A DNA stretch of 64,000 bases from Centipeda noxia ATCC 43541 (GTDB lineage: Bacteria; Bacillota; Negativicutes; Selenomonadales; Selenomonadaceae). Below the pieces are notes generated by a model. The model had not been told where the DNA came from. It ran no database searches and saw nothing but the letters and a program-made list of their open reading frames with translations. Positions 13,803 through 49,215 of the stretch are shown here, piece by piece. The first letter of the stretch is position 1. Every line of letters begins with the position of its first letter. The stretch spans positions 472,187 to 536,186 of the forward strand of contig NZ_GG749280.1 of assembly GCF_000160555.1 (NCBI RefSeq), read 5' to 3'. The translations under genes and the position numbers were made by a program.

Positions 13803-13951
13803 GAAACACAGCCCCTTTCTATCCACGGGAGCGCCGTTCTCTATATCGCTCCCCTTTTATCTATGTATTTCGACGCAAACGGGAAAACCCCTTCCAGATT
13901 CCCTAAATTCTGATTTTTCTTCATACGCGCATACGTTTTTCTGCAAATGAA

Positions 13952-13980
13952 AAAGCCCGCTGTGTAAGCCGGGCTTTTCA
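13952..13980. terminator. Intrinsic terminator after cold-shock gene
   Basis: Nine-bp arms (13952-13960, 13971-13979), A-rich on one side and T-rich on the other, so active for the minus-strand csp transcript and potentially bidirectional. Confidence 0.85.
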
Positions 13981-13991
13981 AACCTGAGTTG

Positions 13992-14192
13992 CTACTCTTT
14001 TTTGATGACGTTGTCCGCCTGCGGACCGCGCGCGCCTTCGACGATATCGAACTCCACTTCCTGTCCTTCGCTGAGGGTCTTGTAGCCCTCGCCCTGGATC
14101 GAGGAAAAGTGTACGAACACGTCGTCGCCGTCCTCGCGGGAGATGAACCCATATCCCTTATCCGCGCTGAACCATTTTACCTTGCCCGTCAT
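13992..14192 (-). CDS. Cold-shock protein (CspA family)
   Basis: A 66-residue single OB-fold RNA chaperone. Both RNA-binding motifs are intact: RNP1 KGYGFI (about 16-21) and RNP2 VFVHF (about 28-32), with the usual [17 protein letters not shown] start and [10 protein letters not shown] end. ATG 14192 follows AAGGAGAG; six upstream in-frame codons are excluded. It is transcribed alone from a consensus promoter about 75 bases upstream and ended by the hairpin at 13952-13980. Whether it is cold-induced or constitutive cannot be told. Confidence 0.96.
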
Positions 14193-14269
14193 TGTCGGCT
14201 CTCCTTTCACTCAGAGAGAAATCCTGCTGCTGTCAGTGTTTCTCCGGACTCGCACGTATGCTTCCCTTT

Positions 14270-14298
14270 ATTATAAGAGCCCTATGTATTACTGTCAA
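14270..14298 (-). promoter_or_regulatory. Consensus sigmaA promoter of the csp gene
   Basis: On the minus strand TTGACA (14298-14293), a 17-base spacer, then TATAAT (14275-14270): a full consensus match. It predicts a 5' leader of about 70 nt. Confidence 0.88.
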
Positions 14299-14412
14299 TG
14301 GTCTATCACGAAACGCGGCAAAGAACGAGTATTCATACTCTTTGACCGTTGTCTCAGTCCGCTGTATTCACTCATGATAGAGATGAAAGGCGCCGTCGCA
14401 AAGCATAGGCCG

Positions 14413-14467
14413 AGGAAAATACGGATAAACAATCGTTTGGGCGCAGATATTCCGTCCGTATTTTCCT
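14413..14467 (-). terminator. Inverted repeat at the end of the glycosylation cluster
   Basis: Thirteen-bp perfect arms (14413-14425 and 14455-14467) overlap the stop codon of the last glycosyltransferase gene. The arms are T/A-rich at their ends but no separate T-run follows, so a transcription end point is likely but not certain. Confidence 0.5.
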
Positions 14468-17204
14468 ATAAATTCGGGAAGAATTTCTCCACGCGCTGAA
14501 GCCGCTCCCGTTCGAGCTCCTCCCTGCGCTCGAACAGCTCGCGATAGACCGCGGCATATTCGTCGATGTGCTGCGCGAGCAGGCGGTGCTCCGCCACATA
14601 GCGGTAGGCGTTCTCCGCGAGCATGCGCCGCAGATCGGCGCGCTTGACGAGGAGTTCAAGCTTCTGTGCGAACTCCTGCGGACTCCGATAGATCAGCCCC
14701 GTTTCGCCATCCTTCACCGTGCGTTCGTAGACCGTCGGCGCGGCGAGCACCGCCGCGCCGTGTCCCGCCGCCTCGATGAATTTCAGATCGGACTTGGCCC
14801 GGTTGAACGCTGTGTCATTCAGCGGCAGGAGAGCAATGTCCGAGGCATGCAGCGCCGCCGTATAGCGCTCGTAGGGAGCGACGATGCCGCCGTCCCGCAC
14901 GCCGCCGATATACTCCTTCGCCGCCGTCTCGAGCTCCTCATAGAAGCCGCGGTCCGAGACGACGCAAAAGTACAGACGATCGCCGCAGCGGCGGACTGCC
15001 TCATTGATCGCCGGCATCAGCGGCTCCCAGTCCGGGCGGCGGTTCAGCGCACCGAAGAAGATCGTCACGCGGCTTTGCTCTGCGTCATAGGAGCGCGGTT
15101 CCGGCAGCTGCACGAGCTGATTTTCAAAGAGATAGACGTATGGGTTGAACGCGCGCAGGACATCCGCAAGATACGGCGTCGAGGTCTGCACAGCAGAGAC
15201 GGCGCGGAACGAGAAGTAATTGTCGCCGACGCTTTTCTTGGAAATCTGCGGGTGATCGTCGATCTCTTGGAGGAGGATATTGCCGGCCTTTCCATACGCT
15301 GTCAAGAGACGGCTGACCTCCGAAGAACAGGTGATGGAGGCTCGTTCAAACAGGATAAAGCTGTCGTGAAGGCCGCCGAGGCGATATAAATTGAGCGCCT
15401 CATCCCCGCGCTGCACAGCTCCGGTCAACGAGACGATCCCTTTTGAAACCAACTGTCCCAGAGGCTTATCCAGGCGAATCGGCGCGCATTCCTCTACGCG
15501 GTTCATCATGATAATATGGAGAGACGGAATCCCCGTCTCATACTCGCGCCGCAGCGCCGGCGCCACCAGGGGCAGCAGGGGCTCAACGGATTCTTTGCAC
15601 TCTTCCTGCAGGAATTCCAGCGCTGCACGATAGTCCGCCTCCTCGGTCAGGAATATGCGGCGGCGCCAATATTCCCCGATCAGACGGCGCCACTCGATGC
15701 GGCTGAGGACCACGGCATCGGGCTGCTGCCCCTCCTGTCCGCCGTGCCGCCGATACAGGCTGAGCGGTCTGCTGAACACGGCCGCATCCCCGTGCTCAAG
15801 GAGTTCCAGCCACATCGCACAGTCCGATATGGTCTCATATCCGCGCGACTCTGCACGCCAATAATGATGCGTCAGATCGCGCCGCCGAAACAGGACCGCC
15901 GAGGGCTCCCCCAAGAAATTGATGCATTTCATCAACATGATGCGTCCGGCGGCAGCGCCGTCAAACTGATTGTAGAGGCCGTGCAGCGGCAGCCCGTATT
16001 CCCACAGCCCCATGAACGTCCCCGCGCCGTCGATGGCGCCACGTACGGACGTGACAAGTGCCGTCGACGGATGCCGCAGAAAGAGATCGACCATCAGCGT
16101 TATTTTATCCGGCAGGAGGATATCGTCGTCCATGCACCACTGCAGGAACTCCCCCTGCGCCAGATGCTCGAACGGCATAAAGTTCTCCGCCTTGGTCCGC
16201 GCGTCTTTGTTCCGCACATAGCGTACGCGCAGATCGTCCCGGTATTCCATCATCAGGGCCTGCGTCCGGTCGTCCGTACTGTTGTCGCAGACGATGATCT
16301 CGATGTTCGGATAGACCTGTGCACGCGCGCTCTCCAGCGTCTCGCGAAAATATTCCGGGCGGTTATAGGTCGGAATCATAATGCTGACGAGCGGCGTACG
16401 AAGGAGAGCGCTGCGGCAGGTAGCCTGCACGAGAGCGGCGCCCTGCGTCCAGTCGATCGCCTCCAGAGCCTCCTGCCAAAGGGTCTCCGGCACACCGATA
16501 TCGAGTCCCCAGCGCTCCGCGAGCGGCGTGCGCATCTGTGTGCGCGTGAGATCATAGAGATCGCAGATCTCCGCGCCCCGATGCGCAAGATAGACCGACG
16601 CACGCAGGAGGTGAAGCCCGGCGCATTTCAGGCGGAACGAGAGATCGAGATCCGCGCCGCCGCGGCCCTCAAACGACGCATCAAATCCACCTGCCTGCCG
16701 AAAAGCAGAGCGGCGCATAAGCAGGGCAAAATGCTCGAGGAAGAGGCTCTCCGTCGGATTGCTCAGATGCTTCTGCACCCAGAGAGCCGCATCCTCTCCC
16801 TCCGCCGCCATGCGCTCCGCATTCAGATACTGCCACGAGAACGCGGTTCGATTCGAAAAAGGACCCACGGCAGCAATCTGCGGGTCCAGCAGGAGGGTCT
16901 CCGTCATTTTTTGCAGGCCGTCCTGCGTGAGCACAACGCCCTCCTGCAGGAACAGCAGCAGTTCAGCGGACGCGGCATCTGCGCTGCGGTTGTTCCACGC
17001 GGCAAGGCTCTCCCCGGCGCAGGAAAGAAAACGGCACGGCACATCATGCAGCTGCTGCCGTGCCGCGCTCTCCTCTGTCTCCGCCGAAACAACGATCAGC
17101 TCTGCATCCACGCCGCATCCGACGGCGGAGGCGAGCGCCGCCTCCGCCGTCTCGCGCAGGTGCGTTCCCTCCGCTGCCGCGAGGATGATGCTGAGCGCGC
17201 TCAT
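14466..17204 (-). CDS. Multidomain glycosyltransferase (two GT2-type domains plus GT-B domain)
   Basis: A 912-residue cytoplasmic protein. Residues 1-270 resemble a divergent GT2 fold (SIILAAAEGTHLRETAEAAL, LLLFLQEGVVLT). A canonical GT2 domain starts near 275 (VSIMIPTYNRPEYFRETLESA, EIIVCDNSTDD, then the acidic FLQWCMDDDILLPDK nucleotide-metal motif). The last third is GT-B-like (FFGALNRRPDWEPLMPAINEAV, ALHASDIALLPLN, LKFIEAAGHGAAVLAA, DGETGLIYRSPQEFA). It overlaps the upstream TPR gene by ATGA and ends the seven-gene cluster. It probably adds further sugars to the glycan begun by the GT41 proteins; donor sugars cannot be assigned. Confidence 0.85.
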   Translation of the reverse strand: MSALSIILAAAEGTHLRETAEAALASAVGCGVDAELIVVSAETEESAARQQLHDVPCRFLSCAGESLAAWNNRSADAASAELLLFLQEGVVLTQDGLQKMTETLLLDPQIAAVGPFSNRTAFSWQYLNAERMAAEGEDAALWVQKHLSNPTESLFLEHFALLMRRSAFRQAGGFDASFEGRGGADLDLSFRLKCAGLHLLRASVYLAHRGAEICDLYDLTRTQMRTPLAERWGLDIGVPETLWQEALEAIDWTQGAALVQATCRSALLRTPLVSIMIPTYNRPEYFRETLESARAQVYPNIEIIVCDNSTDDRTQALMMEYRDDLRVRYVRNKDARTKAENFMPFEHLAQGEFLQWCMDDDILLPDKITLMVDLFLRHPSTALVTSVRGAIDGAGTFMGLWEYGLPLHGLYNQFDGAAAGRIMLMKCINFLGEPSAVLFRRRDLTHHYWRAESRGYETISDCAMWLELLEHGDAAVFSRPLSLYRRHGGQEGQQPDAVVLSRIEWRRLIGEYWRRRIFLTEEADYRAALEFLQEECKESVEPLLPLVAPALRREYETGIPSLHIIMMNRVEECAPIRLDKPLGQLVSKGIVSLTGAVQRGDEALNLYRLGGLHDSFILFERASITCSSEVSRLLTAYGKAGNILLQEIDDHPQISKKSVGDNYFSFRAVSAVQTSTPYLADVLRAFNPYVYLFENQLVQLPEPRSYDAEQSRVTIFFGALNRRPDWEPLMPAINEAVRRCGDRLYFCVVSDRGFYEELETAAKEYIGGVRDGGIVAPYERYTAALHASDIALLPLNDTAFNRAKSDLKFIEAAGHGAAVLAAPTVYERTVKDGETGLIYRSPQEFAQKLELLVKRADLRRMLAENAYRYVAEHRLLAQHIDEYAAVYRELFERREELERERLQRVEKFFPNL

Positions 17205-17998
17205 GATTTCAATGCGCGCAGCAGGAGGAAATCGGTCTTGCGCATCTTTGCCGCCAGCGCAATCGCCTTCTCATGATCTCCCATCTCATGCAGGAGCAGT
17301 GCCATGTTCCGAAGCGCGTCGATGTTGCCCGGATCGAGGCGGATCGTCTCCATGAGCAGGAGCTTTGCGCCCGCATAGTCGCCGTCCATATAGGCGACGC
17401 CTGCAAATGCGTTGAGTGCGCGGCACTTCTCCTGCGGGCGGATCTGCTTGCCGAGGATCTCCGCCGCCGTCGCCGCCGCATCAAACGCAGCGCTCTTTCC
17501 CCGCTCCGTGCCGCTCGAAGCAGCCGTCTGCAGCCCTGCAGATGGGGCAGTCCCGCATGCAGAACCGCCAAGTCCCAACAGGGCTGCCAGATGCGGATAC
17601 TCCGCACGCGTGCGATCCGGATGAAGGCGCGCATCGAGTCCCGCGCGGCGCTCTATTTCCGCACGCTGAGCGCTTGTGAGTGCCTTGCTGTGCACCGCCG
17701 CAATATTCTCATAGAGTTTCAGCGCATCGTCCGTGCGCTTCTCGCGCTGGCAGATACGCGCAAGCAGAATGCGCATGTCGATATCCCCCGGCACACGCGT
17801 GAGCCGGTTCGTGACCCAATTGGCTGCACGCGTATAGTCGCCGAGCTCGAAATAGGCATGTGCAACATCGCCGAAGCACTCCGCGGGCGGATCTCCCTGT
17901 TCCAGCAGGTCGGCAAAGGCATTGATCGCCTCCGCATACGCCCCCTTTTCCATATGTGCACGAATCTGCTCTGCCGTCACAATCTTCTGCTCTGCCAT
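17201..17998 (-). CDS. TPR-repeat protein of the glycosylation cluster
   Basis: A 265-residue all-helical protein with at least three TPR-like repeats (AECFGDVAHAYFELGDYTRAAN, DMRILLARICQREKRTDDALKLYE, IDALRNMALLLHEMGDHEKAIALA) and a low-complexity Ala/Gly/Ser linker near 155-185. No catalytic domain is seen, so it may be a scaffold or substrate-recognition partner. ATG 17998 follows AAAGGA. An in-frame ATG at 18088 would add a strongly basic leader (MKKRKKNRADRMQKKRAE) and overlap the upstream gene; a similar basic start opens the second GT41 gene, so that longer form remains possible. The stop overlaps the next start as ATGA. Confidence 0.75.
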   Translation of the reverse strand: MAEQKIVTAEQIRAHMEKGAYAEAINAFADLLEQGDPPAECFGDVAHAYFELGDYTRAANWVTNRLTRVPGDIDMRILLARICQREKRTDDALKLYENIAAVHSKALTSAQRAEIERRAGLDARLHPDRTRAEYPHLAALLGLGGSACGTAPSAGLQTAASSGTERGKSAAFDAAATAAEILGKQIRPQEKCRALNAFAGVAYMDGDYAGAKLLLMETIRLDPGNIDALRNMALLLHEMGDHEKAIALAAKMRKTDFLLLRALKS

Positions 17999-18074
17999 GG
18001 TCGTTGTTCCTTTCCCATTTCGTTTCTCTTCCCGCTCCGCACGTTTCTTTTGCATGCGGTCTGCGCGGTTTTTC

Positions 18075-19508
18075 TTACGTTTCTTCATCAAGGTATCGCT
18101 CCCATATTGTTTCATACGCCGCTTCCACGCTTCGGACATACCCCGCGCCGTCCATCAGCGGCGATGCCCGCATCATGCGCGGAACAGAGGCATGCAGCGC
18201 CGTCAGCAGCTCCCTGTCCTGCGCAAGGAGCGCGGCCCGCTCCGCATACGCCTGCACGCTGTCTGCAGCGAGTTCGCCCAGTCCCGCATTCTGCAGGAGG
18301 CTCACGCCGAAGCGCGCGCCGTGGCGCGTTCCGGCGAGAGTTACGACGGGCAGGCCCATGCAGAGGGCCTCGCACGTCGTACCTCCTCCCTGATAGGGGT
18401 ATGTGTCGAGGATAATGTCCGCGTCCAGATAGTCGCGGAGATAGTCTTTCGAACCGGGGCGCAGCTCAAGCCGCACCGGGTCAATCCCTGCCCGCTCCGC
18501 GCGCCGCTGCATACGGCGAAGTGTCTCCCTCTGCGGATGCACATTCTTCAGCAGGAGGTGCGCTCCGGGTACGGCGCGCAGGATCCCGCCCCAGATCTGC
18601 AGCATCTCGTCCGTGATCTTCGCAAAGTTGTTGAAACTCGCGAAGACAGGAGAATCATGCGGCACGCGCCGCAGATTTTCATACGTCCGAAACCGCTCCG
18701 ACGGCGTAAAGCAAAGATGCGTCCGGGGCAGGCGCAGAATCCGCTCGGTAAAGAGCGCGTCCGTCTCCGGCGGGTCGCAGATCGGATCGCCGAGGAAGTA
18801 ATCCATCGCGGCGAGTCCCGTCGTATTGAAGTACCCGATCCCGCAGATTTGAACAGGAGCAGGCTTATATGCCGCGATCTGCAGCGTCTTCCCGCCCGCC
18901 GAGTGCCCCGCGAGGTCAAAGAGGATATCCGTGCCGTCCGCATGGATCCGCTCTGCCGCCTCCTGCGGCGAAAGCGCCGACAGATCGGCATAGCCGTCCG
19001 CCATATCCGCCGCCCAGCGCGTCACCTCGGAGCGCTGGCCGCCCGCATCGTAGAGTCTGACCTCAAAGCGCGCACGATCATACGCCGAGAACAGCTGCAC
19101 GGCAAAGTTCAGCACGATGTGATCCGTGATGTTCGGCGAGAGATAGCCGATGCGCAGCTTCTCCCGCCCGTGCTTTTCGTGCGGGAACCGCGGCACGGAG
19201 CCGATCATCGCCGCATATGAGGCGTGCGCGTCCCGCAGTTCCTCATCAGAAATGCCGTCGGCATAGTGAAGATACATCAGATAGTTGCTCAGCGCCGCAA
19301 GGCGCTGCTCATGATTCCTGCGCGGGAGTTCCCATGCGAGGCGCAGATGCGGCAGCGCCTCCTTCAGATCTGCCAGCCAAAAGAGGATCTGCCCCATGAG
19401 TTCATGGAGTTCTGAGCCTCGCTCCGCGGGGAACAGCCCCTGCTGCTCCATCCGCCGCAGTCGGACAAGCGCCTGCTCCATCCGGCCTTCTGCAAGAGAC
19501 TTCTTCAC
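18075..19508 (-). CDS. GT41-family O-GlcNAc transferase-like protein (single catalytic module)
   Basis: OGT/SPINDLY-type transferase with a short TPR-like N-terminus (about 1-110) and one catalytic module. Key elements are LRIGYLSPNITDHIVLNF with the conserved His (about H130), DILFDLAGHSAGG, APVQICGIGYFNTTGL, FASFNNFAKITDEMLQIW (Lys equivalent to the nucleotide-contacting Lys of human OGT) and DTYPYQGGGTTCEALCMGLPVV. The family moves GlcNAc, fucose or other sugars onto Ser/Thr. The start is uncertain: GTG 19508 lies 17 bp after the upstream stop but has a weak ribosome site; GTG 19589 would overlap the upstream gene with family-unlike residues. Confidence 0.83.
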   Translation of the reverse strand: MKKSLAEGRMEQALVRLRRMEQQGLFPAERGSELHELMGQILFWLADLKEALPHLRLAWELPRRNHEQRLAALSNYLMYLHYADGISDEELRDAHASYAAMIGSVPRFPHEKHGREKLRIGYLSPNITDHIVLNFAVQLFSAYDRARFEVRLYDAGGQRSEVTRWAADMADGYADLSALSPQEAAERIHADGTDILFDLAGHSAGGKTLQIAAYKPAPVQICGIGYFNTTGLAAMDYFLGDPICDPPETDALFTERILRLPRTHLCFTPSERFRTYENLRRVPHDSPVFASFNNFAKITDEMLQIWGGILRAVPGAHLLLKNVHPQRETLRRMQRRAERAGIDPVRLELRPGSKDYLRDYLDADIILDTYPYQGGGTTCEALCMGLPVVTLAGTRHGARFGVSLLQNAGLGELAADSVQAYAERAALLAQDRELLTALHASVPRMMRASPLMDGAGYVRSVEAAYETIWERYLDEET

Positions 19509-19524
19509 TGCAGAGAATTCACGT

Positions 19525-22254
19525 TCAAACGTCTGCCTGCTCTGCGTTCCACTGCGCCCAGATCGCACGGTAGCATTCCTCCATCTCACGAATATAACGC
19601 TCCTGATCCATGACCGGAGAGGCCTTCATACGGGGGCGCAGCTCCCGGTGCAGCGCATCCAGCAGATCGAGATTTCCCGCAAGCGCCGCAGCCGTCTCGA
19701 TATAGTCCTCCAGCCGGTCGGAGGCAAGCTCCGCAAGCCCCATATTCGCAAGGAGACTGTATGTAAAGCGCGTGCTGTGCCGGTCCGTATAGTACGACAC
19801 AACGGGCACGCCCATATAGAGCGCATCGCAGGTCGTTCCGCCGCCCGGCCATGGAAATGTATCGAGCGCAATATCCACATCGAGATAGCGCAGCATATAG
19901 TCCCGCGACGCCCCCTCGAACTGCACGCGGCTCATATCAAAGCCGAGCCGTTTCAGGCGGTCATGCGCCAATACCGCAATGCCGGGCCGTCCGTAGTCGC
20001 TGTTCTTCAACAGCAGGCGCGCCGTCGGCACGCGCTCCATAATCCCGCGCCATGCATGCAGCATAGCATCGTGCAGTTTCAGATACTGGTTGAACGAGGC
20101 GAACTGAACATATCCTTTCGTGCGCGCAGGGGTTCCCGCCGATGCAGGCAGATGCGTATACCCATTATAGCAGAATTGACTCGTCAGGCGCAGTAATTTT
20201 TCGACATAGACGCGTTCACTGCCGCTGCCCTCGGGATCGCAGAAATGATCCGTCACGAAGTAATCCACCGCGGGCAGCCCCGTCGTCGCCATATAGCCGA
20301 GTCCCGAGATCTGCACCGGCGCCGGCTTCCACGCGAGCGCGGCGAGTCCGGAGTCCGACGTGTGCCCCCCGAGGTCAAAGAGGATATCGACCTCATCCGC
20401 ATGGATCTCGCGGGCGATCCGCTCCATGTCCCGTGTATGGTCCGAAAAATCGCGCCACTTTGTCACCAGCGTTTGAAAGAACTTCGAGTATTGGTCCGAC
20501 TTCCCCAGACTGTAAACATAGACCTCAAACTGCGTGCGGTCAAATCCCGCAAGAAACGGCCAGACAAAGTACTGCATGACATGCTGACGGAAATCGCCCG
20601 AAATATAGCCGATGCGTATCTTCTCCTTGACGCGGTGGTTTCGATGGGAGAACTGCTGTATCCCCGGGAAAAGATCCGCATAGCCGAGGCTCTTTTGATA
20701 CACCTCCTGCGCGGATACATCTGCCGCATTCAGTTTAAAAAGGCCGGCTCCGTAGTAGCAGCGCCGCATAAACACATCCGCTGTTTCCTGCGCATACGCC
20801 ATCGCATACGCGGACGCCGCCGCAGAGCCGCAGACAAATACGCCGTGGTCTGCGCCCATCTTGAGCAGTATCGTGCGCACATCCGATACGGCGGGGAGTC
20901 CGTCTTCGATCAGCGCAAGTCCCTCCTGCGCCCGTGCAAAGATCTCCATGCTCGTCCCGGGCGGCGCGGCGCTGACGACGGAAAGGTAGAGCCGCGCGCC
21001 CTCGCGGCCGCGCGGGACACCCTCCGCCGCAAGTGCCCAGCGTCCCGCAAGCGTCGGCATATCGCGAAAGAAATACGCCCATGCGAGATCCAGCCGCTGT
21101 TCGGGCCGCAGCTGTTCCATCCCGTCCAATGCATGCGCCGCATGCAGAACCGTATCCCAATCCTCCCGCGCAGAGGCATCTGCGATCACCGCCGCCAGCT
21201 CCTCTGCGGGCTCTGCCGCGTCTTTCATGAGTGCCCGCTCATAGGCGCGCTCCACCGAGAACTGGATCGCTCCCGGATCAAAGGCGTCGTGCAGGCGCCA
21301 GTGCAGAAGCTCGTGCAGTTCCGAGAGGCGCTGTAGATCAGTGCACAGCGCGCATGCCTGTACGGCAGCTTCCCCGATCGTCTGTGCCGGCGGCACTTTC
21401 AGCCGATTCAAAAGATCTGCCGCACGGCGGCCGCGCACAAGAGGCATCGCTGTGAGAAGAGGAACGCCGTGATCTGCGGCACGGCAGACATCAATCAGAT
21501 CGACGCCCGCACCGAGTGCCAGATCGATCGCATCATAGGACAGTTCGTCCACAAGGTCGAGGGAAGATTCCTCTGTTCCAGCCTCTGCCAAACGGTCAAA
21601 ATCCTCCGAGGAAAACGCACCCGCGACGGCGGCAGGCAGGATCAGACGAACGCCGCGCATCTGCCGCAGCATCTCCGCGAGCAGCTGCAAAAGCCCCTCT
21701 GCCTCGCCCGCGTGCAGGGTTCCGCCGATCCCGATCGTCGGCATGCCCGCATCCAAGAGCGGCGTGCGGTACGCATAGCGCGAAACGAGCTCAAACGGCG
21801 CATAGCAATAGGGAAAGACCTCTTTCCCCTCAACGGCGGGAAGCTGTTCGGCAAGCTCTGCGGGGCACATCTCGGCAAGAGAGATTATATGCGGCGCGGG
21901 CCGCAGCTCCATAACGCGCCGAATAAGCTCCGTCGGCGTCCCAAGGGAGAGATCGACGAGGAGATCGACCGCATCCCGGCGAATGAGCGCTGCCGCCTCC
22001 TCGGCCGAATTCCGGCCGATCTCGCGGAATTCTACCTCCTTGGAAAAGGATTCAACATCTCCGCCGATTCCCGTATGGTAGGCATATACCTCATAGCGCA
22101 GCTGATCATATCCGGAAAAGAACGCGGGGAGCAGATCACGTGCCCGCCCCATGCCGAAATCAGCGGAGAGATATCCCAAACGGATCTTTCGGCACATATG
22201 ATTTTGCGCGGCGTGTTTTTTCCGATGCCCGGCGTGCGCTCTCTTTTTCTTCAT
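19525..22254 (-). CDS. GT41-like protein with degenerate N-terminal and intact C-terminal catalytic module
   Basis: A 909-residue protein. Residues 22-330 keep the GT41 outline (KIRLGYLSADFGMGRARDLLPAFFSGYD, VDLLVDLSLGTPTEL, APHIISLAEM) but lack the conserved His, the FN-K motif and GGGTTCDAL. A helical TPR-like link follows. Residues 545-909 form an intact module: ISGDFRQHVMQYF (H558), DILFDLGGHTSD, APVQISGLGYMATTGL, FASFNQYLKLHDAM (K726), PWPGGGTTCDALYMGVPVV. It starts at ATG 22254, overlapping the upstream stop as ATGA, with a basic leader MKKKRAHAGHRKKH. The N-terminal half may bind substrate rather than catalyse. Confidence 0.85.
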   Translation of the reverse strand: MKKKRAHAGHRKKHAAQNHMCRKIRLGYLSADFGMGRARDLLPAFFSGYDQLRYEVYAYHTGIGGDVESFSKEVEFREIGRNSAEEAAALIRRDAVDLLVDLSLGTPTELIRRVMELRPAPHIISLAEMCPAELAEQLPAVEGKEVFPYCYAPFELVSRYAYRTPLLDAGMPTIGIGGTLHAGEAEGLLQLLAEMLRQMRGVRLILPAAVAGAFSSEDFDRLAEAGTEESSLDLVDELSYDAIDLALGAGVDLIDVCRAADHGVPLLTAMPLVRGRRAADLLNRLKVPPAQTIGEAAVQACALCTDLQRLSELHELLHWRLHDAFDPGAIQFSVERAYERALMKDAAEPAEELAAVIADASAREDWDTVLHAAHALDGMEQLRPEQRLDLAWAYFFRDMPTLAGRWALAAEGVPRGREGARLYLSVVSAAPPGTSMEIFARAQEGLALIEDGLPAVSDVRTILLKMGADHGVFVCGSAAASAYAMAYAQETADVFMRRCYYGAGLFKLNAADVSAQEVYQKSLGYADLFPGIQQFSHRNHRVKEKIRIGYISGDFRQHVMQYFVWPFLAGFDRTQFEVYVYSLGKSDQYSKFFQTLVTKWRDFSDHTRDMERIAREIHADEVDILFDLGGHTSDSGLAALAWKPAPVQISGLGYMATTGLPAVDYFVTDHFCDPEGSGSERVYVEKLLRLTSQFCYNGYTHLPASAGTPARTKGYVQFASFNQYLKLHDAMLHAWRGIMERVPTARLLLKNSDYGRPGIAVLAHDRLKRLGFDMSRVQFEGASRDYMLRYLDVDIALDTFPWPGGGTTCDALYMGVPVVSYYTDRHSTRFTYSLLANMGLAELASDRLEDYIETAAALAGNLDLLDALHRELRPRMKASPVMDQERYIREMEECYRAIWAQWNAEQADV

Positions 22255-25200
22255 TGCCTCTTCCCTTCCGTACGGTCCGACACGCTGTGATATGCCTGTT
22301 CCAATGCGCGCATATACCCCTCTTGATCCATGACAGGCGACGTTTCCATCCGCCCGCGCAGGCCGCGGTGCAGTGCGTCCAGTGCCGCGAGATCCCCCGC
22401 AAGAGACACCGCGCGTTCGATATAGTCCGCAGGCGTCTGCACGGCAAGATCGGTCTGACCAATATGGGCGAGCAGGGCATAGGAGAACCGTGTGCTCCGC
22501 CGCGCTCCGTACATGGTCACCACGGGCACGCCCATGTAGAGCGCATCGCAGGTCGTGCCGCCGCCCGGCCACGGATAGGTGTCGAGCGCGATGTCCACAT
22601 CGAGATAGCGCTGCATATAGTCCGTCGTCGCAGGCTCCAAAGCCACGCGCCGCAGGTCGAACCCGAGCCGCTTCATCCGCGCCCGCGCAGTCTCTGTCAT
22701 TGCAGGGGAAAAGAACACCTGCGACTTTATAAGCAGGCGCGCCGTCGGCACACGCTCCATGATCTCCCGCCAAACGGTCAGCATCGCATCCGTATATTTA
22801 CGGTACTGATTGAAGACGCCGAACGTAATATATCCCCGGCTGCGCGCGGGCGTCTCCGCCGCAGCCGGCAGACCTGCGCGCGGCACGTAGACAAACTGGC
22901 TCGGCAGCCGGATCAGTTTCTCGGTGAAATATCGCTCGCTCGTGCCGCCGACCGGATCGCAGACCGCATCCGTCAGGAAGTAATCCACGGCGCGCAGGCC
23001 TGACGTCGCCGTATAGCCGAGCCCCATCATCTGCACGGGCGCAGGCCTGCGGGCGAGAACGGGGAGCGCACCGCCCGCCGCATGACCGGCAAGATCGACG
23101 AGAATATCGATCTCGTCTTCCTGAATGCACGCGGCGATCTCCTCCGGCGCAGCGCCGCCCAGATCGCGCCATGCCGCCGCATGAGGCCGCAGCGCTGCCG
23201 TTGCCTCGTCCGGCTGCGCTGTCAGGCTGTAAGCGTATACATCAAAATGCGCGCGATCGTACATCGTCAGCATCGGCTGGATAAAATGCAGCATCACATT
23301 GCGGCGAAAATCCGGAGAAATATACCCAACGCGGATCTTCTTGTGCCGATAGGGCTCCCGTTTCGCGCAGCGCGGAACATCCTCAAAAATTTTCTCATAC
23401 GCGCAGTGGGCGCGGAACAATTCATCCATATCCGCCTCCTGCGCATTCTGTGCGAGGAGGAACGAACTGTACAGCGACGGATCCGACGGCTCTTCCTCAT
23501 ACGCGCTGCGGTAAAACTCCGCCGCCCGCACATCACCCATACGATAGGCGACGGCGGCCCGCAGCCGCATAAACGCATGCCGCAGAGGCGTGCGCCGCGC
23601 TGCAAGATACGCTTCTGCGAGCGCCATTGCCCGCGGCAGATCTCCCTGCCGCTCTACGGCATAGGCATGGAGATAGCACAGCATATCGTCCTGCACGCCG
23701 GCAGCAAACGCCGCTTCTGCGCACTCCTGCGCCTCTGCGCATTGCCCCGCCTCGAGCGCCGCAAAGATGCGCGCTCTTATCTCCTGGATGTCTCCACTGA
23801 TTCTATCGTCACGGACGGGCACCGACTTTAACCGCGCGGCATCTGCATATTCTGCCCAAACGCGCGCATACGCGGCGCCGAGATCCCGCCCGTAGCCCGC
23901 AGCGTCCATCACGGGCGACGTCTCCATCATCGCGCGCAGCCCTGCGTGAAGCGCATCCAGCGCGGCGGCATCCTGCGCGAGAGATACGGCGAGCGCGATA
24001 TAGTCTTCCTCCGTGTGCGCGGCGAGTTCCTTCGCCCCGATATTTTCCAAAAGCGATGCGCCGAAACGGCTGCCGAGGCTCGCCCCCGCGAGCGTCACAA
24101 CCGGCACACCCATGTAGAGTGCATCGCAGGTCGTGCCGCCGCCCGGATAGGGGAAGGGGTCGAGCGCAATATCCACCCGTGCATAGGCGGCAAGATAATC
24201 GGCCGACGCTCCCTCCGCATCGACGCGCACAAGGGGAATCCCTGCCGCCTCGATGCGTCTGAGCGCCTCCCTGCGGCTGTCCGCATAGGAGAACACATCC
24301 GTCTTGAGCAGGAGGCGGCTCTCCGGCACGCGCCGCAAAATCTCCGCCCATACGGAAAGCACGCGGTCATTCAGCTTCGTAAAGTTGTTGAAGCTCCCAA
24401 AGACAATGCTGCGCCCCGCTGCGGGCGCATGCGCGGGAACGGGAGCCGGATGCAGCGGCTGCCAGCAAAAATGTGAATGCGGCAGCACAAGCAGTTTCTC
24501 CGTGAAGCCCTCCGCCGCATTGCCCGCCGCCAGCACGGGATCGGCAAGGAAATAGTCCGCCGTGGGAAGCCCCGTCGAGGCGAAGTAGCCGATGCCCGAG
24601 ATCTGTACGGGCGCGGGCCGATATGCGAGGATCGGAAGCGTCCTGCCCGCCGTGTGTCCGGCAAGATCGACGAGGATATCGATGCCGTCGCGATAGATCG
24701 AACGCGCCGCTTCCTCAGCGGAAAGCTGCGAGAGGTTTCGAAAAACATCCACTGCGTTCCGCACTTTTTCCGTAAACGAGTCCGCGCGGTTCATCGCGTA
24801 GACAAACACCTCAAAACGGGCGGGGTCAAGCGCCGTCATCAGCGCATGCGAAAAGGAGAGCACGACATGCTCCCGCACATCGGGCGAAAGATACCCGATG
24901 CGGAGCCGCCGCTCCCTTGACCTATTGTGTTTTTCGTGCGTAAACGGCCGCACATCTGCAAAGAGCGCGCCGTATTCCTCTGCCGCGCGGCGATCCTCCG
25001 CAAGGGATGCGGGGAGATAGTGCCGATTAAAGAGCACATTGCTCGCGTTGAGCGCACGCAGCGAAAGCTCCTCCGCGGCATCGCGCGCCTGCGCATAATA
25101 GTGCACAGCCTCTGCCGCACGTCCGAGAAAGCGCGCGCACTGCCCCGCCAGATTGTATGCCTTCTCCGCAACAGCCGCGGGCAGTCGCTGCTCCAGCAGC

Positions 25201-25490
25201 GGCGCGAGCAGCGTCAGCGCGCATATCCGCTCGTTTTCCATAACGTGAATCCGCGCCCGCAGGAAAATCGTATAGGGATCATCGGGCGCGAGCGCCGCAC
25301 GCTGCTGCCACGCAGCAAACGCCTCGTCCGCACGCCCCGCCTCAATGTGAAGCGCCGTCCGAAGACCCGCCGCCTCTGCAGGCTCATATGCCTGCAGCTC
25401 CGCGATCCCGTTCTGCGCCTGTGCCTCATCTCCGTGTGCAAGCGCCGCAAAGATGCGCGCGCGCAACACTTCCAACACATCTCTTTTCAT
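22251..25490 (-). CDS. Double-headed GT41 O-GlcNAc transferase-like protein
   Basis: A 1079-residue protein with two complete TPR-plus-GT41 units. Unit 1: helical repeats 1-190, then LRIGYLSPDVREHVV (H208), FGSFNNFTKLND (K372), GGGTTCDALYMGVPVV (about 450). Unit 2: repeats from about 565, then VGYISPDFRRNVMLHF at 721-736, FNQYRKYTD (K898), GGGTTCDALYMGVPVV (about 977). Both units open with RARIFAAL-x2-G-x2-AEAQ-like sequence (about residues 10 and 572), showing whole-module duplication of about 560 residues. Unit 2 has Asn731 where unit 1 and OGT have His. ATGA overlaps join it to both neighbours. Probably glycosylates flagellin or another abundant protein; the donor is unknown. Confidence 0.87.
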   Translation of the reverse strand: MKRDVLEVLRARIFAALAHGDEAQAQNGIAELQAYEPAEAAGLRTALHIEAGRADEAFAAWQQRAALAPDDPYTIFLRARIHVMENERICALTLLAPLLEQRLPAAVAEKAYNLAGQCARFLGRAAEAVHYYAQARDAAEELSLRALNASNVLFNRHYLPASLAEDRRAAEEYGALFADVRPFTHEKHNRSRERRLRIGYLSPDVREHVVLSFSHALMTALDPARFEVFVYAMNRADSFTEKVRNAVDVFRNLSQLSAEEAARSIYRDGIDILVDLAGHTAGRTLPILAYRPAPVQISGIGYFASTGLPTADYFLADPVLAAGNAAEGFTEKLLVLPHSHFCWQPLHPAPVPAHAPAAGRSIVFGSFNNFTKLNDRVLSVWAEILRRVPESRLLLKTDVFSYADSRREALRRIEAAGIPLVRVDAEGASADYLAAYARVDIALDPFPYPGGGTTCDALYMGVPVVTLAGASLGSRFGASLLENIGAKELAAHTEEDYIALAVSLAQDAAALDALHAGLRAMMETSPVMDAAGYGRDLGAAYARVWAEYADAARLKSVPVRDDRISGDIQEIRARIFAALEAGQCAEAQECAEAAFAAGVQDDMLCYLHAYAVERQGDLPRAMALAEAYLAARRTPLRHAFMRLRAAVAYRMGDVRAAEFYRSAYEEEPSDPSLYSSFLLAQNAQEADMDELFRAHCAYEKIFEDVPRCAKREPYRHKKIRVGYISPDFRRNVMLHFIQPMLTMYDRAHFDVYAYSLTAQPDEATAALRPHAAAWRDLGGAAPEEIAACIQEDEIDILVDLAGHAAGGALPVLARRPAPVQMMGLGYTATSGLRAVDYFLTDAVCDPVGGTSERYFTEKLIRLPSQFVYVPRAGLPAAAETPARSRGYITFGVFNQYRKYTDAMLTVWREIMERVPTARLLIKSQVFFSPAMTETARARMKRLGFDLRRVALEPATTDYMQRYLDVDIALDTYPWPGGGTTCDALYMGVPVVTMYGARRSTRFSYALLAHIGQTDLAVQTPADYIERAVSLAGDLAALDALHRGLRGRMETSPVMDQEGYMRALEQAYHSVSDRTEGKRQ

Positions 25491-26965
25491 CCGCGCATCT
25501 CCGCAATCCGTCCGATGCGCCGCCGCATGCGCTGTGCCTCAGGCGCATGTGAGGTTCCTTTGCAGGAGTCCGGCAGGAGGAGCGCCATCGCTGCACGCTG
25601 TTCGGGCGAGAATACATCCCCATACGCCGCGGTCACAGCCGCCGCGCGCTCCATATCCTCAATGAGCGAAGCTGCAGCAGCGCAGGCGTCCCCCGCCAGC
25701 AGGAAACGGCGGCGCTGATCAAATTTCACGCTGCTGCGGCGATCATAGTAAAGCGACGCCAAGTGAAAAGGGGAACCCGCGAGCACGGATGCGAGAAGTG
25801 CCGCATCCGAATCCCGGCGGTAGATCCCGCCGAGCGTCTCGATCACTGCCGCATCGTCTGCTCCGATGCGGTGCAGCATCCGAACGAATCCGGCAAGGAA
25901 CGGAGCGAAGTGCGGATTGAGGCGCAGCCCCTGCTCATAGAGCAGCACCGCCTCCTCCATATTCCCGCGCAGAGCCGCGGCCTCGCCCATCCGCACATAT
26001 GCGGACGGCACAAGAATCCCCGAGAAATCCCCCGCGCGGTAATACGCCTCATGCAGGCGAATGCCCTCTCCATACGCATCACATGCCGTTGCAAACCAGC
26101 CCTGATCCCACGCATACGTACCGTAGATCAGCGGGAAATCCGCCTTTTCCGGAAATGCTTTCCGCGCCTTATCATATGCCTCCGCAATCTCCGCATCCTC
26201 TGCGCCCATCAGGATGAGCGATTGGAGCAGAACCGCATGCGGACGATCCTCCGATCCCACCGGACGGTCCGCGCTGTCCCGCGCCGCGCGCGCGTACTGC
26301 GCCGCATGCAGATAGTCCTCCAGCGAATAGTAGCAGTCCATCAGGTGGTATTCGTCCAGTTTATTCCGCTCGCCCTTCGCGCGGCGGGCGAGCAGCAGCT
26401 CCAAATCACGCCGCGACTTCTGCTTGATGATGCGCGGCGAATAGCCCGTATGATAGAGCGTCAGCCCGGGCGCCATCATCATCTCCCGCCCGAGATCGCC
26501 GCTGAGGTTCTCCACGTGCTCGTGGATGCTGCCCACAAACCGTATGTGCGGCGCGCGGCGGAAGATGCGCTGCACCTTTGCCGTCGTCCCGAGCAGCGCC
26601 CCCGTATCCATATCGATGTTGACGAGATGCACGATGAACCCGTCGATCTTCGCGCGCCGATCGTACTCCTCGATCAGAGGACGCACGCGCGGTGCACTCT
26701 CCTCCGTAAAGTACTCGTCCGCGTCGGTAAAGACCACCCAGTCGCCCGACGCCGCATCGAGCGCAAAATTCTTTGCCGCAGAAAAATCATTGACCCAGTC
26801 GAAGCGCAGCACCTGCGCACCGCCCGCGCGCGCGATCTGCACGGTCGCGTCCGTCGATCCCGTATCGACCACGATCATCTCATCGGCAAAGACGCGCATC
26901 GATGCGAGCCAGCGCGGCAGATTTTCCGCCTCATTCTTTGCAATAACGCAGGCAGAGATCTTCAT
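25487..26965 (-). CDS. GT2 glycosyltransferase with C-terminal TPR-like region
   Basis: A 492-residue protein. Residues 1-220 are a GT2 domain: [63 protein letters not shown] with the DxD motif at D81/D83. The rest is helical with TPR-like repeats ([28 protein letters not shown]). This GT2+TPR arrangement is shared with peptide glycosyltransferases such as SunS and the flagellin transferase GmaR. ATG 26965 overlaps the upstream stop as ATGA; the frame is open upstream but that part is an out-of-frame read of the neighbour. Likely acts directly on protein. Confidence 0.85.
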
Positions 26966-29805
26966 CGTATCAGCTCCAGTAATTCCTTCGACTTTCGGTG
27001 CGCCGCGTCCGCAGCGAGCGCCTGCGCCAGATATTCCCGCGCCTTCTCGCGCCCTCCGAGGTGCAGGGAGGCGAGCCCCATCCCATAGAGATCGTCCGCC
27101 CCGGATTTCTCCAAACCGGTGCAGCACTCAAATGCCGCAAATGCCGCGCGCCAGCGCTGCGCCGCCGCAAACGACTCCGCCGCCGACCGGAGCGCATCTG
27201 CGCCGTATTCTGCAGCGATCTCCAAAAATCGTGCCGCCTGCGCATCATCCGCATGATGAACAAATGCTTCCCGCACGAGTTCATAGCCCTCCATGTTCCC
27301 AGGGAGCTCCGCTGCATCCGGCTCATCGTAATGCCGCCAAAACGCCTGCATCGATCCGGGCAGGAGCCCGCGCAGGCGATGGCGAAGATGCATGCTCTCC
27401 GCGTGCGCATCGCGCTCCAGATCCAGAAGAATCTCCGGAATCTCGCGCGCATATCCCGCCAGAACAGACACCAGCCGCTGACCGAGAGCCTCCAGCGCAG
27501 AGGCGTGCAGTTCCTCATAGAGCGAGGGCTCCGGCACGCGATGCCCCGTCTCCTGTGCGAGCGCCGCACGCGCCTGTTCGGCAAGGCGCAGCCATCCGTA
27601 GCTGTCTGCAAAGCGCGCGAGATAGGACAGCGTCTCGGCATCCGTCCCGAGCATCCTGCGCAGTTGCGCCAGAAGCTGCGGCGCGCCGTCTGCCGCATGA
27701 AGCTCCGCATAGACATCCAGAGCCTCCTCGCGCGCCGTACCGAGAGAGAGCGCACGCGCCGCTTCCTCCTCTGCCGCAGGAGTATCCCCCGCCTCCATCA
27801 ACACGCGTGCGCGCGCCGCAGAAACAGCGCCTGCCCATGCGGAGAACTCCGACGCCTCGCCGCTCTCGTCCATCGGATTCTCCCAAAGTGTCAGCGCCCG
27901 CGTCAGTTCGCCGCGTGCCGCCGCGTCGCCCGCCGCCGCAAGCAGCAGCCCGAGCCTCCCGTGGAAATCCGGCAGGAGGGGATATGCCTCGCATCCTGCG
28001 CGCGCGGCGGCGGTCTGTTCTGCCAGAGATATATTTTCCTTTTCCATCGCATCCAGCAGAAGATGATGGAGATGACTCTGCGCCCCGACGGATCTCACAT
28101 CCTCGTCCAGCGCCGCACGCGCATAGATGAGTGCTGCCGCATATTGCCCGAGGCCGTAATACGTATCCGCAAGATAACGGCAGTCTCCGGGCTGCAGTCC
28201 CGTCTCTTCGATGCGGCGCTCCATCAGCGCGAGATTGCGCTCGTGTTTGGCGCGCATGCGCCCCGCAGAGTAGCCCACGTGACGGATGGAGAGCGCAGCA
28301 GGTTCATGATAGAGCACAGGCTCTCCGCCGGCCTTCGTCAGCGCCTCATGCACCCGCCCCTCATAGGAGAGGCCTCGTCCGAGACGCAGGAGGCGGACAT
28401 GCGGCGCGCGCCCCGTCTCACGATCCCCCGCGTCCTCATCCACGTGCACGATCGGCACCAGCACGGCATCCACATGCGGCATGATCACATCCATCATCGC
28501 AAGATACGCACGCACCTCGGTCGGATCGAAGAAGCTCTCGTCCGCGTCCAAAACAGCCGCCCAGTCCCCATTCGCCTCTGCAAGAGAGGCATTGCGCGCG
28601 GCCGCAAAATCGTCCTGCCATGCAAAATCAAAAACGCGTGCGCCGGCGGCCTCTGCCATGGAGCGCGTGCCGTCGGTCGATCCCGTATCGACGACGACCC
28701 GCTCGTCCGCATAGGCAGCGGCATTCGAGAGCCACGTCTTCATATCCTTCGCATCATTGCGCACAAATACACAGGCAGAGACGCGGAGATTCTCCGCACG
28801 CGCAGCGATGCGCCGCCAGATCTCCATCCGCCGCCGCAGCTCCGCCGCCATATCCTCCGTGAAGAGAGAGACTTCCAATCCGCTCTCCTGCGCGGGAGAC
28901 GAAACTGCCTTCTCCGCCGCCGCAGCCGCCTCAGAATAGCGATGGAGCGCGGCCAGCGCCTCGGCCAGCTCCGCGCACATCTCAGGCAGCTCCGGGAACT
29001 CCTGCGCGGCCTGCTCCGCGATCGTCAGACGTTTTTCCCGCAGCTGCGGATGCGTGCCGTAAAGACGCAGCAGAATCCGATACGAACGGGCCGCATAGAC
29101 GACGGATCTCCGTCCGCGTGCAACATCGAGGAGAGCGTAATGCTCCGCCATTCGTTCATTGCCGAGATTGTCATAGGTCTCCGCGAGATAGCGCCAGCAG
29201 CGCTCCGGTGCATCGGTCTGCCGCAGTTCCTCGAGAAGGAGCCGCAGATTGCGCTCTCCCTTTTCCCGAGTCAGCGCGGCGGAGTAGCCCGTATGCACGA
29301 GCGTCAGCAGCTCCGGCGCGATAATGCGCGCCGGCGGCACACTGCCGTCCGCGTCGCGCAGCTCCTCATGGATACGCCCCTCATAGCGGCGCCCCTCCCG
29401 CCGGCGAAAGATCCGCGGCGCATAGGAGTCGAGCAGCGTTTCCCCCGTCGCCTCGTCGATGTTATGCCAGGGCACCAGAAGGACCTCGCTGCGCTCCGCC
29501 TCCGCCTGCTCAACAGCGCAGCGAAGGTTCTCCCGCGTCTCGGCAGAAAAATATTCGTCCGCATCAATAAAGACAATCCAATCGCCTGTCGCATGCGAGA
29601 GCGCCGCGTTGCGCGCGGAAGAAAAATCATCTTGCCACACGAAATCATGGACCGCCGCGTGAAAATCCACCGCCGTCTCTGCAACACCTCTGTCTCCTGC
29701 TGTCGAGACGACAATGATCTCGTCTGCCGCATCCCGGAGAGACGCGAGAGAGCGGCGAAGCTCATGCGCTTCGTCTTTTGCGATATAACATGCAGAGATC
29801 TTCAT
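26962..29805 (-). CDS. Double GT2 glycosyltransferase with TPR-like C-terminus
   Basis: First gene of the glycosylation cluster, 947 residues. GT2 domain 1 (1-210): [19 protein letters not shown] and [12 protein letters not shown] with D81/D83. Helical linker, then GT2 domain 2 (about 340-560): [47 protein letters not shown] with D420/D422. The last 380 residues are Ala/Leu-rich helices like TPRs. The two heads resemble each other and the next gene, so internal and gene duplication are likely. ATG 29805 follows AAGGAAGG; an upstream in-frame ATG at 29826 lacks a site. A TTGCCA-N17-TATAAT promoter lies just upstream. Confidence 0.85.
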
Positions 29806-29834
29806 GCCGCATGACCTTCCTTTCATATAGAAAT

Positions 29835-29863
29835 ATTATAAGCGATCTGCTGAAATTTGGCAA
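29835..29863 (-). promoter_or_regulatory. sigmaA-type promoter of the glycosylation cluster
   Basis: On the minus strand TTGCCA (29863-29858), a 17-base spacer and TATAAT (29840-29835), about 30 bases before the first start codon. It sits just past the fliC terminator, so the cluster can be transcribed independently of flagellin. Confidence 0.8.
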
Positions 29864-29868
29864 AGAAA

Positions 29869-29902
29869 AAGAACCCCTCCCCGAAGGGAGAGGTTCTTTT
29901 TT
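29869..29902. terminator. Intrinsic terminator after fliC
   Basis: AAGAACC-(C)-CTCCC pairs with GGGAG-(A)-GGTTCTT around CGAA; T-runs occur on both strands. It ends the fliC transcript and separates it from the glycosylation operon. Confidence 0.88.
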
Positions 29903-29926
29903 CCGTAATATTGAGCCGAAGCTGAA

Positions 29927-47207: not shown

Positions 47208-47219
47208 CACATTCTCTCC

Positions 47220-48293: not shown

Positions 48294-48363
48294 CCTCTCA
48301 CCGCCTCCCGCTGTCTCATAAATCCGAAGGGTCCTTGATACGGGTCCTCCCCGCTCAGCGCGC

Positions 48364-49146: not shown

Positions 49147-49215
49147 AGGATGTCCTCCCGTCAAACAGTTTCTCTCATAATGATGCGCCGCGTAGATTCC
49201 CTTCTCCGCGCAGCC

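What the first reader, a model, noticed from the sequence alone, without database searches (positions are those of the whole stretch)
14466..29805. Seven-gene glycosylation island abutting flagellin, centred on GT41 enzymes
Seven minus-strand genes (two GT2-TPR, three GT41, one TPR, one multidomain GT) are joined mostly by ATGA overlaps and follow fliC directly, with a terminator and a separate promoter between. The position and the Ser/Thr-rich flagellin centre point to flagellin O-glycosylation, but with an OGT-like set rather than the pseudaminic acid/Maf system known from other bacteria. I recall published glycoproteomics of Selenomonas sputigena flagellin reporting unusual O-glycans, which fits; the enzymes here are candidates for it.
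Basis: partly seen in the sequence, partly recalled or inferred. Interest (0 to 1): 0.88.

Follow-up and report, generated by a model that had tools for sequence, protein, structure and literature searches.

The report
Flagellin sugar-coating gene island
Next to the main flagellum protein gene of an oral Selenomonas-type bacterium lie seven genes that very probably decorate that protein with sugars inside the cell, using an unusual set of enzymes related to the plant sugar-transfer enzyme SPINDLY rather than the better-known bacterial ones.

Summary
Seven minus-strand genes (14466-29805) follow fliC after a terminator-like and a promoter-like site; four of six junctions are ATGA overlaps. Contents are as described: GmaR/SunS-like GT2 enzymes, three GT41 genes, a TPR protein, a multidomain GT. 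The island stands beside fliC in 14 of 14 genus genomes examined. It accompanies the Ser/Thr-rich flagellin (14 of 14), never the second flagellin (0 of 14). No Maf protein was found in the genus (0 of 14). Flagellin O-glycosylation is therefore the best reading. Three refinements. (1) The GT41 proteins match SPINDLY best, and all four intact domains carry SPY's base-contact lysine K689 where human OGT has leucine, so UDP-GlcNAc is a less likely donor for them; other pocket positions are mixed. The GT2 enzymes are better GlcNAc candidates. (2) One gene is a tandem GT41; another carries a catalytically dead GT41 domain, kept dead across the genus, before an intact one. (3) rmlD (dTDP-L-rhamnose) is present in 14 of 14 genus genomes, gmd in 11 of 14, which suits the rhamnose-linked flagellin glycans cited for S. 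sputigena. Donor and acceptor were not shown experimentally. New variant of a known kind.

The parts
29927..31261 (-). fliC, the island-linked flagellin (444 aa), presumed acceptor; central region about 28% Ser+Thr
   Evidence: Pfam Flagellin_N/C; Ser/Thr counts; start at 31261 after GGAGG
29835..29893 (-). terminator-like hairpin (29893-29876) and sigma-70-like promoter site (29863-29835) between fliC and g1
   Evidence: pattern matches only
26962..29805 (-). g1: double GT2, GmaR/SunS-like; DAD motif seen in both GT2 domains by eye; candidate initiating O-glycosyltransferase
   Evidence: Pfam; PDB best hit GmaR 22ao E 4.4e-27, then SunS 6.7e-17; NCBIfam SunS 119 bits, below its 350 cut-off; start 29805 preferred over 29826
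25487..26965 (-). g2: GT2-TPR, GmaR/SunS-like
   Evidence: Pfam; NCBIfam SunS 80 bits, below cut-off; ATGA overlap with g1
22251..25490 (-). g3: tandem GT41; residues at 689/731/744 are K/A/Y (first domain) and K/R/W (second); helical, probably TPR-like, stretches before each GT41 domain
   Evidence: Pfam; PDB SPINDLY E 1.5e-87; residues; helices from a low-confidence model
19525..22254 (-). g4: N-terminal catalytically dead GT41 domain (about 21205-22210) plus intact GT41 domain (K/R/W)
   Evidence: hhalign E 2.8e-33 on 13 rows, catalytic positions lost in 13 of 13; reversed control E 0.88; PDB SPINDLY E 2e-62 over residues 544-902 only; distribution
18075..19589 (-). g5: single GT41 (K/D/Y); longest ORF given, start uncertain
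   Evidence: Pfam; PDB SPINDLY E 2.2e-66; start candidates
17201..18139 (-). g6: TPR protein, possible acceptor-binding or scaffold subunit; start uncertain (17998 or 18088 also possible)
   Evidence: Pfam TPR
14466..17204 (-). g7: two GT2-type domains and a GT4-like domain, probable chain-extending enzyme
   Evidence: Pfam; ATGA overlap with g6

Best explanation
This is a cytoplasmic flagellin O-glycosylation island. It very likely acts on the island-linked, Ser/Thr-rich FliC before export. GmaR/SunS-like GT2 enzymes (g1, g2) attach a first sugar, probably GlcNAc, to Ser/Thr. The SPINDLY-like GT41 enzymes (g3, g4, g5) act as further protein O-glycosyltransferases, or early extenders, using a donor other than UDP-GlcNAc, most likely a 6-deoxyhexose such as L-rhamnose. 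The TPR parts (g6, g2, the helical parts of g3, and possibly the dead GT41 domain of g4) hold the flagellin, as the TPR part of Caulobacter FlmG does. g7 extends the chains. Shown here: gene content, conserved linkage to fliC, GT41 residue signatures, the dead domain, no Maf match in the genus. Inferred: acceptor, donors, order of action, division of labour.
For: Island beside fliC in the same order in 13 of 13 genus relatives; 24 of 78 named flagellin loci, from several genera, have both GT2 and GT41 within the fetched flanks. Paired test in 14 genus genomes: GT41 and GT2 matches near the linked flagellin in 14 of 14 and near the second flagellin in 0 of 14; central Ser+Thr 26.0% (23.9-28.4) against 18.7% (17.3-21.2). 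PDB best match of g3, g4, g5 is SPINDLY. Position 689 is K in the four intact window domains and in all 43 genus-relative domains of 250 residues or more (12 g3 first, 8 g3 second, 12 g4, 11 g5); PMC10027727 names K689/L866 as a donor discriminator. g1's best PDB match is GmaR, and the GT gene next to fliC in C. difficile (CD0240) is needed for O-GlcNAc on flagellin (PMC4441256, passages). FlmG's TPR part binds flagellins (PMC7591256, passages). Maf 0 of 14 genus genomes; rmlD 14 of 14. S. sputigena flagella are cited as carrying rhamnose-linked O-glycans (PMC13339959, passage).
Against: No activity or glycan was measured. Three more GT41 genes lie elsewhere in the genome, so GT41 function is not confined to flagellin. 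In the wider set linkage is patchy: of 78 named flagellin loci 10 have GT2 only, 4 GT41 only, 40 neither; many are cut by contig ends or are other flagellin copies. The donor call rests on few residues: 731 is A, R, R, D and 744 is Y, W, W, Y in the window domains, and the bacterial OGT homologue XcOGT also has Y at 744; 747/748 are GG, not TT; PMC10027727 reports mixed patterns in prokaryotes. gmd is present in the window genome and one paper calls the S. sputigena sugar fucose (PMC10202936, passage). Central Ser/Thr positions of FliC are not more conserved than others (28 of 61 kept as S/T; 86 of 159 other positions identical). The window genome lacks the fliC-proximal GT2 that 13 of 13 relatives have.
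Confidence: 0.75

Rival explanations
1. The GT41 enzymes are ordinary UDP-GlcNAc O-GlcNAc transferases, as the first reader's OGT label implies, and the island adds GlcNAc-based chains only.
For: Pfam family is shared with OGT; R at the OGT R904 position in two of four window domains; the Y at 744 in two window domains is also in XcOGT. GlcNAc-linked glycans in S. sputigena flagellin are recalled from the Rath 2018 abstract.
Against: K instead of L at 689/866 and Y or W instead of C at 744/917 in all four domains; PMC10027727 argues that K689 and Y744 disfavour uridine and the N-acetyl group; best PDB match is SPINDLY.
Confidence: 0.11
2. The GT41 enzymes transfer a nonulosonic acid (pseudaminic, legionaminic or sialic type) without Maf, like Caulobacter FlmG.
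For: FlmG is a TPR-GT-B enzyme that modifies flagellins with pseudaminic acid (PMC7591256, passages). Strong NeuB-family matches in 12 of 14 genus genomes; in G004 and G006 one lies about 19 kb from fliC and in G007 a partial one about 15 kb away.
Against: G010 and G011 have only weak NeuB matches (best E 5.5e-13 and 3.3e-10; probably DAHP synthase, inferred), yet G010 has all seven island genes (L025).
Confidence: 0.06
3. The island acts mainly on another target (LPS, capsule or a cell-surface adhesin), and fliC is merely a neighbour.
For: Three GT41 genes elsewhere in the genome; GT41 in one class-level genome without a flagellin match (G036); sugar-nucleotide genes lie about 15 kb upstream of fliC.
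Against: Same order next to fliC in 13 of 13 genus relatives; 14 of 14 against 0 of 14 linkage and the Ser/Thr contrast between the two flagellins; no Pfam match to a polymerase, flippase or membrane enzyme in the seven proteins.
Confidence: 0.06
4. The GT41 genes are HMW1C-like N-glucosyltransferases that modify Asn.
For: NCBIfam NGT model matches g3 at 53.6 bits, and PDB NGT chains match g3 and g5 weakly.
Against: Far below the model's cut-off of 1000 bits; NGT E about 1e-6 against SPINDLY 1.5e-87 for g3; no NGT chain among the matches of g4.
Confidence: 0.02

Closest known systems
Caulobacter FlmG (PMC7591256, passages)
   Same: Cytoplasmic TPR plus GT-B enzyme that O-glycosylates flagellins; TPR part binds flagellin
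   Different: One enzyme, using pseudaminic acid; here three GT41 genes, a tandem GT41 and a dead GT41 domain beside GmaR-like GT2 enzymes
Enterobacteriaceae flagellin glycosylation islands with GT41 (PMC4875605, passages)
   Same: GT41 (COG3914, SPINDLY-type) genes in flagellin glycosylation islands, known from genomics
   Different: There each strain carries GTs of one family only and most GT41 proteins also hold methyltransferase domains; here GT2 and GT41 coexist, one GT41 protein is tandem, and Pfam gave no methyltransferase domain in the seven proteins
Clostridioides difficile CD0240 type A island (PMC4441256, passages)
   Same: Glycosyltransferase gene directly downstream of fliC that starts flagellin O-GlcNAc modification
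   Different: No GT41 gene mentioned in the passages seen
Listeria GmaR and Bacillus SunS
   Same: Closest solved structures to g1 by sequence
   Different: g1 has two GT2 domains; GmaR is also an anti-repressor and SunS modifies Cys of a peptide (recalled); neither role tested here
Arabidopsis SPINDLY (GT41 protein O-fucosyltransferase)
   Same: Closest solved relative of g3, g4, g5; K665 and K689 shared by the four intact domains, Y744 by two
   Different: A731 only in the first g3 domain; T747 and T748 replaced by Gly in all four; bacterial, tandem in one gene, linked to flagellin

Membership tests
GT41 (Pfam Glyco_transf_41) | Whole-protein score above the curated cut-off | tested here: met
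   g3 311.5, g4 145.7, g5 138.9 bits against 25
GT41 (Pfam Glyco_transf_41) | Catalytic lysine equivalent to human K842 / SPY K665 | tested here: met
   K in all four intact window domains; no K at the aligned column of the g4 N-terminal domain in 13 of 13 rows
OGT/SEC-like clan of GT41 (PMC10027727) | L866, R904, C917 pattern | tested here: not met
   Window domains read K/A/Y, K/R/W, K/R/W, K/D/Y
SPY-like clan of GT41 (PMC10027727) | K689, A731, Y744 pattern | tested here: inconclusive
   The first g3 domain meets all three; g5 keeps K and Y; the second g3 domain and g4 keep K only
SPY-like clan of GT41 (PMC10027727) | Placement in a family tree | tested here: inconclusive
   SPY, XcOGT and TtOGT fall in an unresolved fork
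SPY-like clan of GT41 (PMC10027727) | GDP-fucose protein O-fucosyltransferase activity | not testable with these tools
   Needs an enzyme assay
HMW1C-like N-glucosyltransferase | NCBIfam NGTferase equivalog score | tested here: not met
   53.6, 19.6 and 21.7 bits for g3, g4, g5 against 1000
SunS family S-glycosyltransferase | TIGR04195 equivalog score | tested here: not met
   119.2 and 80.2 bits for g1, g2 against 350
Maf-type flagellin glycosylation | Maf protein (PF01973) | tested here: not met
   0 of 14 genus genomes; 2 of 25 searched, both outside the family
Flagellin glycosylation island | Glycosyltransferase genes adjacent to fliC, conserved in relatives | tested here: met
   14 of 14 genus genomes counting the window
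Flagellin glycosylation island | Glycosylated flagellin that depends on the genes | not testable with these tools
   Needs mass spectrometry and mutants

The most novel reading that the evidence does not exclude
The GT41 set is a family of dTDP-L-rhamnose-dependent (or otherwise deoxyhexose-dependent) protein O-glycosyltransferases that start rhamnose-linked flagellin glycans, a donor use that I know of for no GT41 enzyme. In one of them a duplicated GT41 domain has been turned into a dead domain that reads or holds the flagellin substrate for the active domain.
Probability: 0.3. Interest if true: 0.78.

Novelty: new variant of a known kind. Interest (0 to 1): 0.6.

Why it matters
A heavily glycosylated flagellin is reported for S. 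sputigena (PMC10202936, passage); the rhamnose- and GlcNAc-linked structures are recalled from Rath 2018, and I know of no assigned enzymes. This island offers a small, conserved candidate set in close relatives, with testable donor predictions. If right, it extends the GT41 family (O-GlcNAc, O-fucose, N-glucose) to another donor, separates GT2 and GT41 roles within one island, and supplies a natural pseudo-glycosyltransferase domain for studying how flagellin is recognised before export.

Tried and rejected
HMW1C-like N-glycosyltransferase: rejected on scores. Plain OGT label: weakened by residues. Maf system: no match in the genus. Structure prediction: g4 on 3 sequences gave mean pLDDT 42 and was not searched; g3 on 5 sequences gave pLDDT 56 and pTM 0.31. 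The 50 Foldseek rows listed for g3 are GT41 structures with SPINDLY first, but TM-scores are 0.16-0.33, so this adds little beyond sequence. A GT41 tree on 69 domains, from the window, 8 of 13 genus loci, other loci and three references, grouped window domains by their place in the island but left SPY, XcOGT and TtOGT unresolved.

Paper searches with nothing on point in the listings: SPINDLY with flagellin beyond PMC4875605, Selenomonas with flagellin and glycosyltransferase, rhamnosyltransferase with flagellin. Rath 2018 is not held; its content is recalled or taken from citing papers. The recalled sites Thr149, Ser182, Thr199, Thr259, Ser334 fall near conserved S/T positions here, but this was not checked against that protein.

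Limits of counts; in the genus table 18 domain hits under 250 residues were set aside (14 assigned to g4 N-terminal, 2 each to g4 and g3 second domain). Its tally of 82 domains outside the 13 genus loci (300 residues or more) gave K at 689 in 67, Q in 8, R in 7, L in none; it includes named records of genomes also counted as unnamed ones, so rows are not independent. One search compared 13 linked flagellins with 7 paralogs; one search repeats this with 14 and 14. One search had three unsuitable rows of 16; one search dropped them, and so holds the window and 12 of 13 relatives (L022 left out). TtOGT 5djs is a K341M mutant, so its missing catalytic lysine is artificial. Searches gave capped lists.

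Full report
WHAT WAS CHECKED. The window is contig C17:472187-536186 of a 2.05-Mb genome in 19 contigs, 99.98% complete. It is an oral Selenomonas/Centipeda-type organism; no call shows that it is S. sputigena.

ANATOMY. Seven ORFs lie on the minus strand from 29805 down to 14466. Pfam gives g1 two GT2 domains; g2 GT2 plus TPR; g3, g4, g5 GT41; g6 TPR; g7 two GT2-type domains and a GT4-like one. Between fliC and g1 stand a terminator-like hairpin and a promoter-like site matching 11 of 12 bases. Because the -10 box ends 9 nt before ATG 29826, ATG 29805 is the better start. ATGA overlaps join 4 of 6 junctions. The starts of g5 and g6 are open, and promoter-like sites inside the island exceed the shuffles (13 against 4.6, both strands, 13700-29700), so a single transcript is likely but not shown. 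Downstream is the ribosome hibernation factor gene. Upstream are flagellar genes, named by eye from the ORF list as fliS, fliD, flaG, csrA, flgL, flgK, flgN.

CONSERVATION. I fetched the fliC region of 13 genus relatives and searched it with the window proteins. g1, g2, g4 and g6 are there in 13 of 13. g7 matches in 13 of 13, at nearly full length in 10; it is partial in G001, G003 and G005. The first GT41 domain of g3 is in 12 of 13 and g5 in 11 of 13. G002 lacks g3 and g5; G011 lacks g5; G004, G007 and G011 keep only the first half of g3; in G003 and G013 g3 is split into several pieces. In G001, G005 and G006 a second g7-like match follows. A further GT2 gene lies between fliC and g1 in 13 of 13. 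A search of the window genome with one of these (from G001) found only g1 and g2, at 31-39% identity, so the window genome lacks it.

Wider spread. Of 78 named flagellin loci (a capped list, many cut by contig ends), 24 have both GT2 and GT41 in the flanks, 10 GT2 only, 4 GT41 only and 40 neither. Those with both include Mitsuokella, Schwartzia, Anaerovibrio, S. ruminantium and Pectinatus. A genome of another family (G040, L035) has GT2 and GT41 behind fliC too. Of the 41 genomes have both GT41 and flagellin, 5 flagellin only, 1 GT41 only and 6 neither; they are related, so this is no independence test. In the listed matches G017, G024, G026, G029, G031 and G037 have GT41 on another contig than flagellin or far from it; positions for G028 were not listed.

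ACCEPTOR. Each genus genome has a second flagellin. In 14 genomes, 17-20 kb around it hold no GT41 or GT2 match in 14 of 14, while the linked flagellin has both in 14 of 14. The central region of the linked flagellin is 26.0% Ser+Thr on average (23.9-28.4), the paralog 18.7% (17.3-21.2), without overlap. Against this, the central Ser/Thr positions are not more conserved than others: 28 of 61 stay Ser/Thr in 14 sequences, and 86 of 159 other positions are identical. The linked flagellin is the likely acceptor, by inference.

GT41 ENZYMES. The best solved relative of g3, g4 and g5 is Arabidopsis SPINDLY (E 1.5e-87, 2e-62, 2.2e-66), ahead of OGTs and far ahead of N-glycosyltransferases. PMC10027727 (section 7 read in full) names three residues that separate SPY from human OGT: K689/L866, A731/R904, Y744/C917. 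The window domains read K/A/Y (g3 first), K/R/W (g3 second), K/R/W (g4) and K/D/Y (g5), all with the catalytic lysine. In the genus relatives: g3 first K/A/Y in 11 of 12 and K/S/Y in 1; g3 second K/R/W in 8 of 8; g4 K/R/W in 12 of 12; g5 K/D/Y in 11 of 11 (domains of 250 residues or more). The second g3 domain has N in place of SPY H495 / human H558 in all 8 and in the window. None matches the OGT pattern. But XcOGT reads L/R/Y, so a tyrosine at 744 alone does not mark a SPY-type enzyme, and the same paper reports mixed patterns in prokaryotes. This is a lead on the donor, not proof.

DEAD DOMAIN. The first 340 or so residues of g4 align over 323 columns with the GT41 profile (hhalign E 2.8e-33 on 13 rows; reversed control E 0.88 and GT2 control E 0.15). 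At the aligned columns there is no lysine for K665 and none for K689, and the GGGTTCD motif is gone, in 13 of 13 rows (gap placement near K665 is uncertain). A protein search at E 1e-15 finds the domain in 14 of 14 genus genomes and in 1 of 107 other family genomes sampled. It is a conserved, essentially genus-specific pseudo-GT41 domain.

GT2 ENZYMES. g1 matches GmaR (E 4.4e-27) and SunS in the PDB. GmaR is recalled as a flagellin O-GlcNAc transferase of Listeria; a reference title says so. In C. difficile the GT next to fliC is needed for O-GlcNAc on flagellin (PMC4441256, passages). These GT2 enzymes are the better GlcNAc candidates.

DONORS. In the 14 genus genomes: rmlD in 14, gmd in 11 (missing in G005, G008, G010 at E 1e-20), strong NeuB in 12, Maf in 0. 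G010 lacks gmd and strong NeuB yet carries all seven island genes, so neither sugar is a general requirement, fucose salvage aside. dTDP-L-rhamnose is the one tested deoxyhexose route common to all. GDP-mannose was not tested. PMC13339959 cites S. [quoted passage not shown] PMC10202936 calls fucose a major constituent (passage). Both cite Rath 2018, which I could not read.

VERDICT. The GT41 enzymes are better called SPINDLY-like than OGT-like. GT41 genes in flagellin islands are already known from Enterobacteriaceae (PMC4875605, passages), and cytoplasmic TPR-GT glycosylation of flagellin from Caulobacter. The mixed GT2/GT41 set, the tandem GT41 and the conserved dead GT41 domain make this a new variant of a known kind.

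Noticed in passing
window 45876-49164 (-): RfbH-, CDP-glucose 4,6-dehydratase- and glucose-1-phosphate cytidylyltransferase-type genes above their curated cut-offs, about 15 kb from fliC; possibly a sugar supply for surface or flagellar glycans.
   Followed up: no
window 29827-29926: A GT2 gene that sits between fliC and g1 in 13 of 13 genus relatives is missing in the window genome, although it is the position of the initiating enzyme in C. difficile.
   Followed up: partly
L039:7182-8567 (genome C17:350144): Second flagellin, 58% identical to fliC, lower Ser/Thr in its centre, directly followed by an ORF of about 2400 codons.
   Followed up: partly
L036, L037, L038: Three further GT41 genes in the genome with other pocket signatures (K/E/Y, K/Q/Y, Q/S/Y); their targets are unknown.
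   Followed up: partly
L016, L020, L021: A second g7-like match follows g7 in three relatives, cut by the end of the fetched stretch.
   Followed up: no
L043-L046: A different GT41 type (about 30% identical to g5) in class-level relatives; it forms its own clade.
   Followed up: no
window 14298-14270 (-): A 12-of-12 sigma-70-like promoter site just downstream of g7, before the hibernation-factor gene.
   Followed up: no
literature: Two papers citing the same S. sputigena flagellin study name the deoxyhexose differently: rhamnose (PMC13339959) and fucose (PMC10202936).
   Followed up: partly
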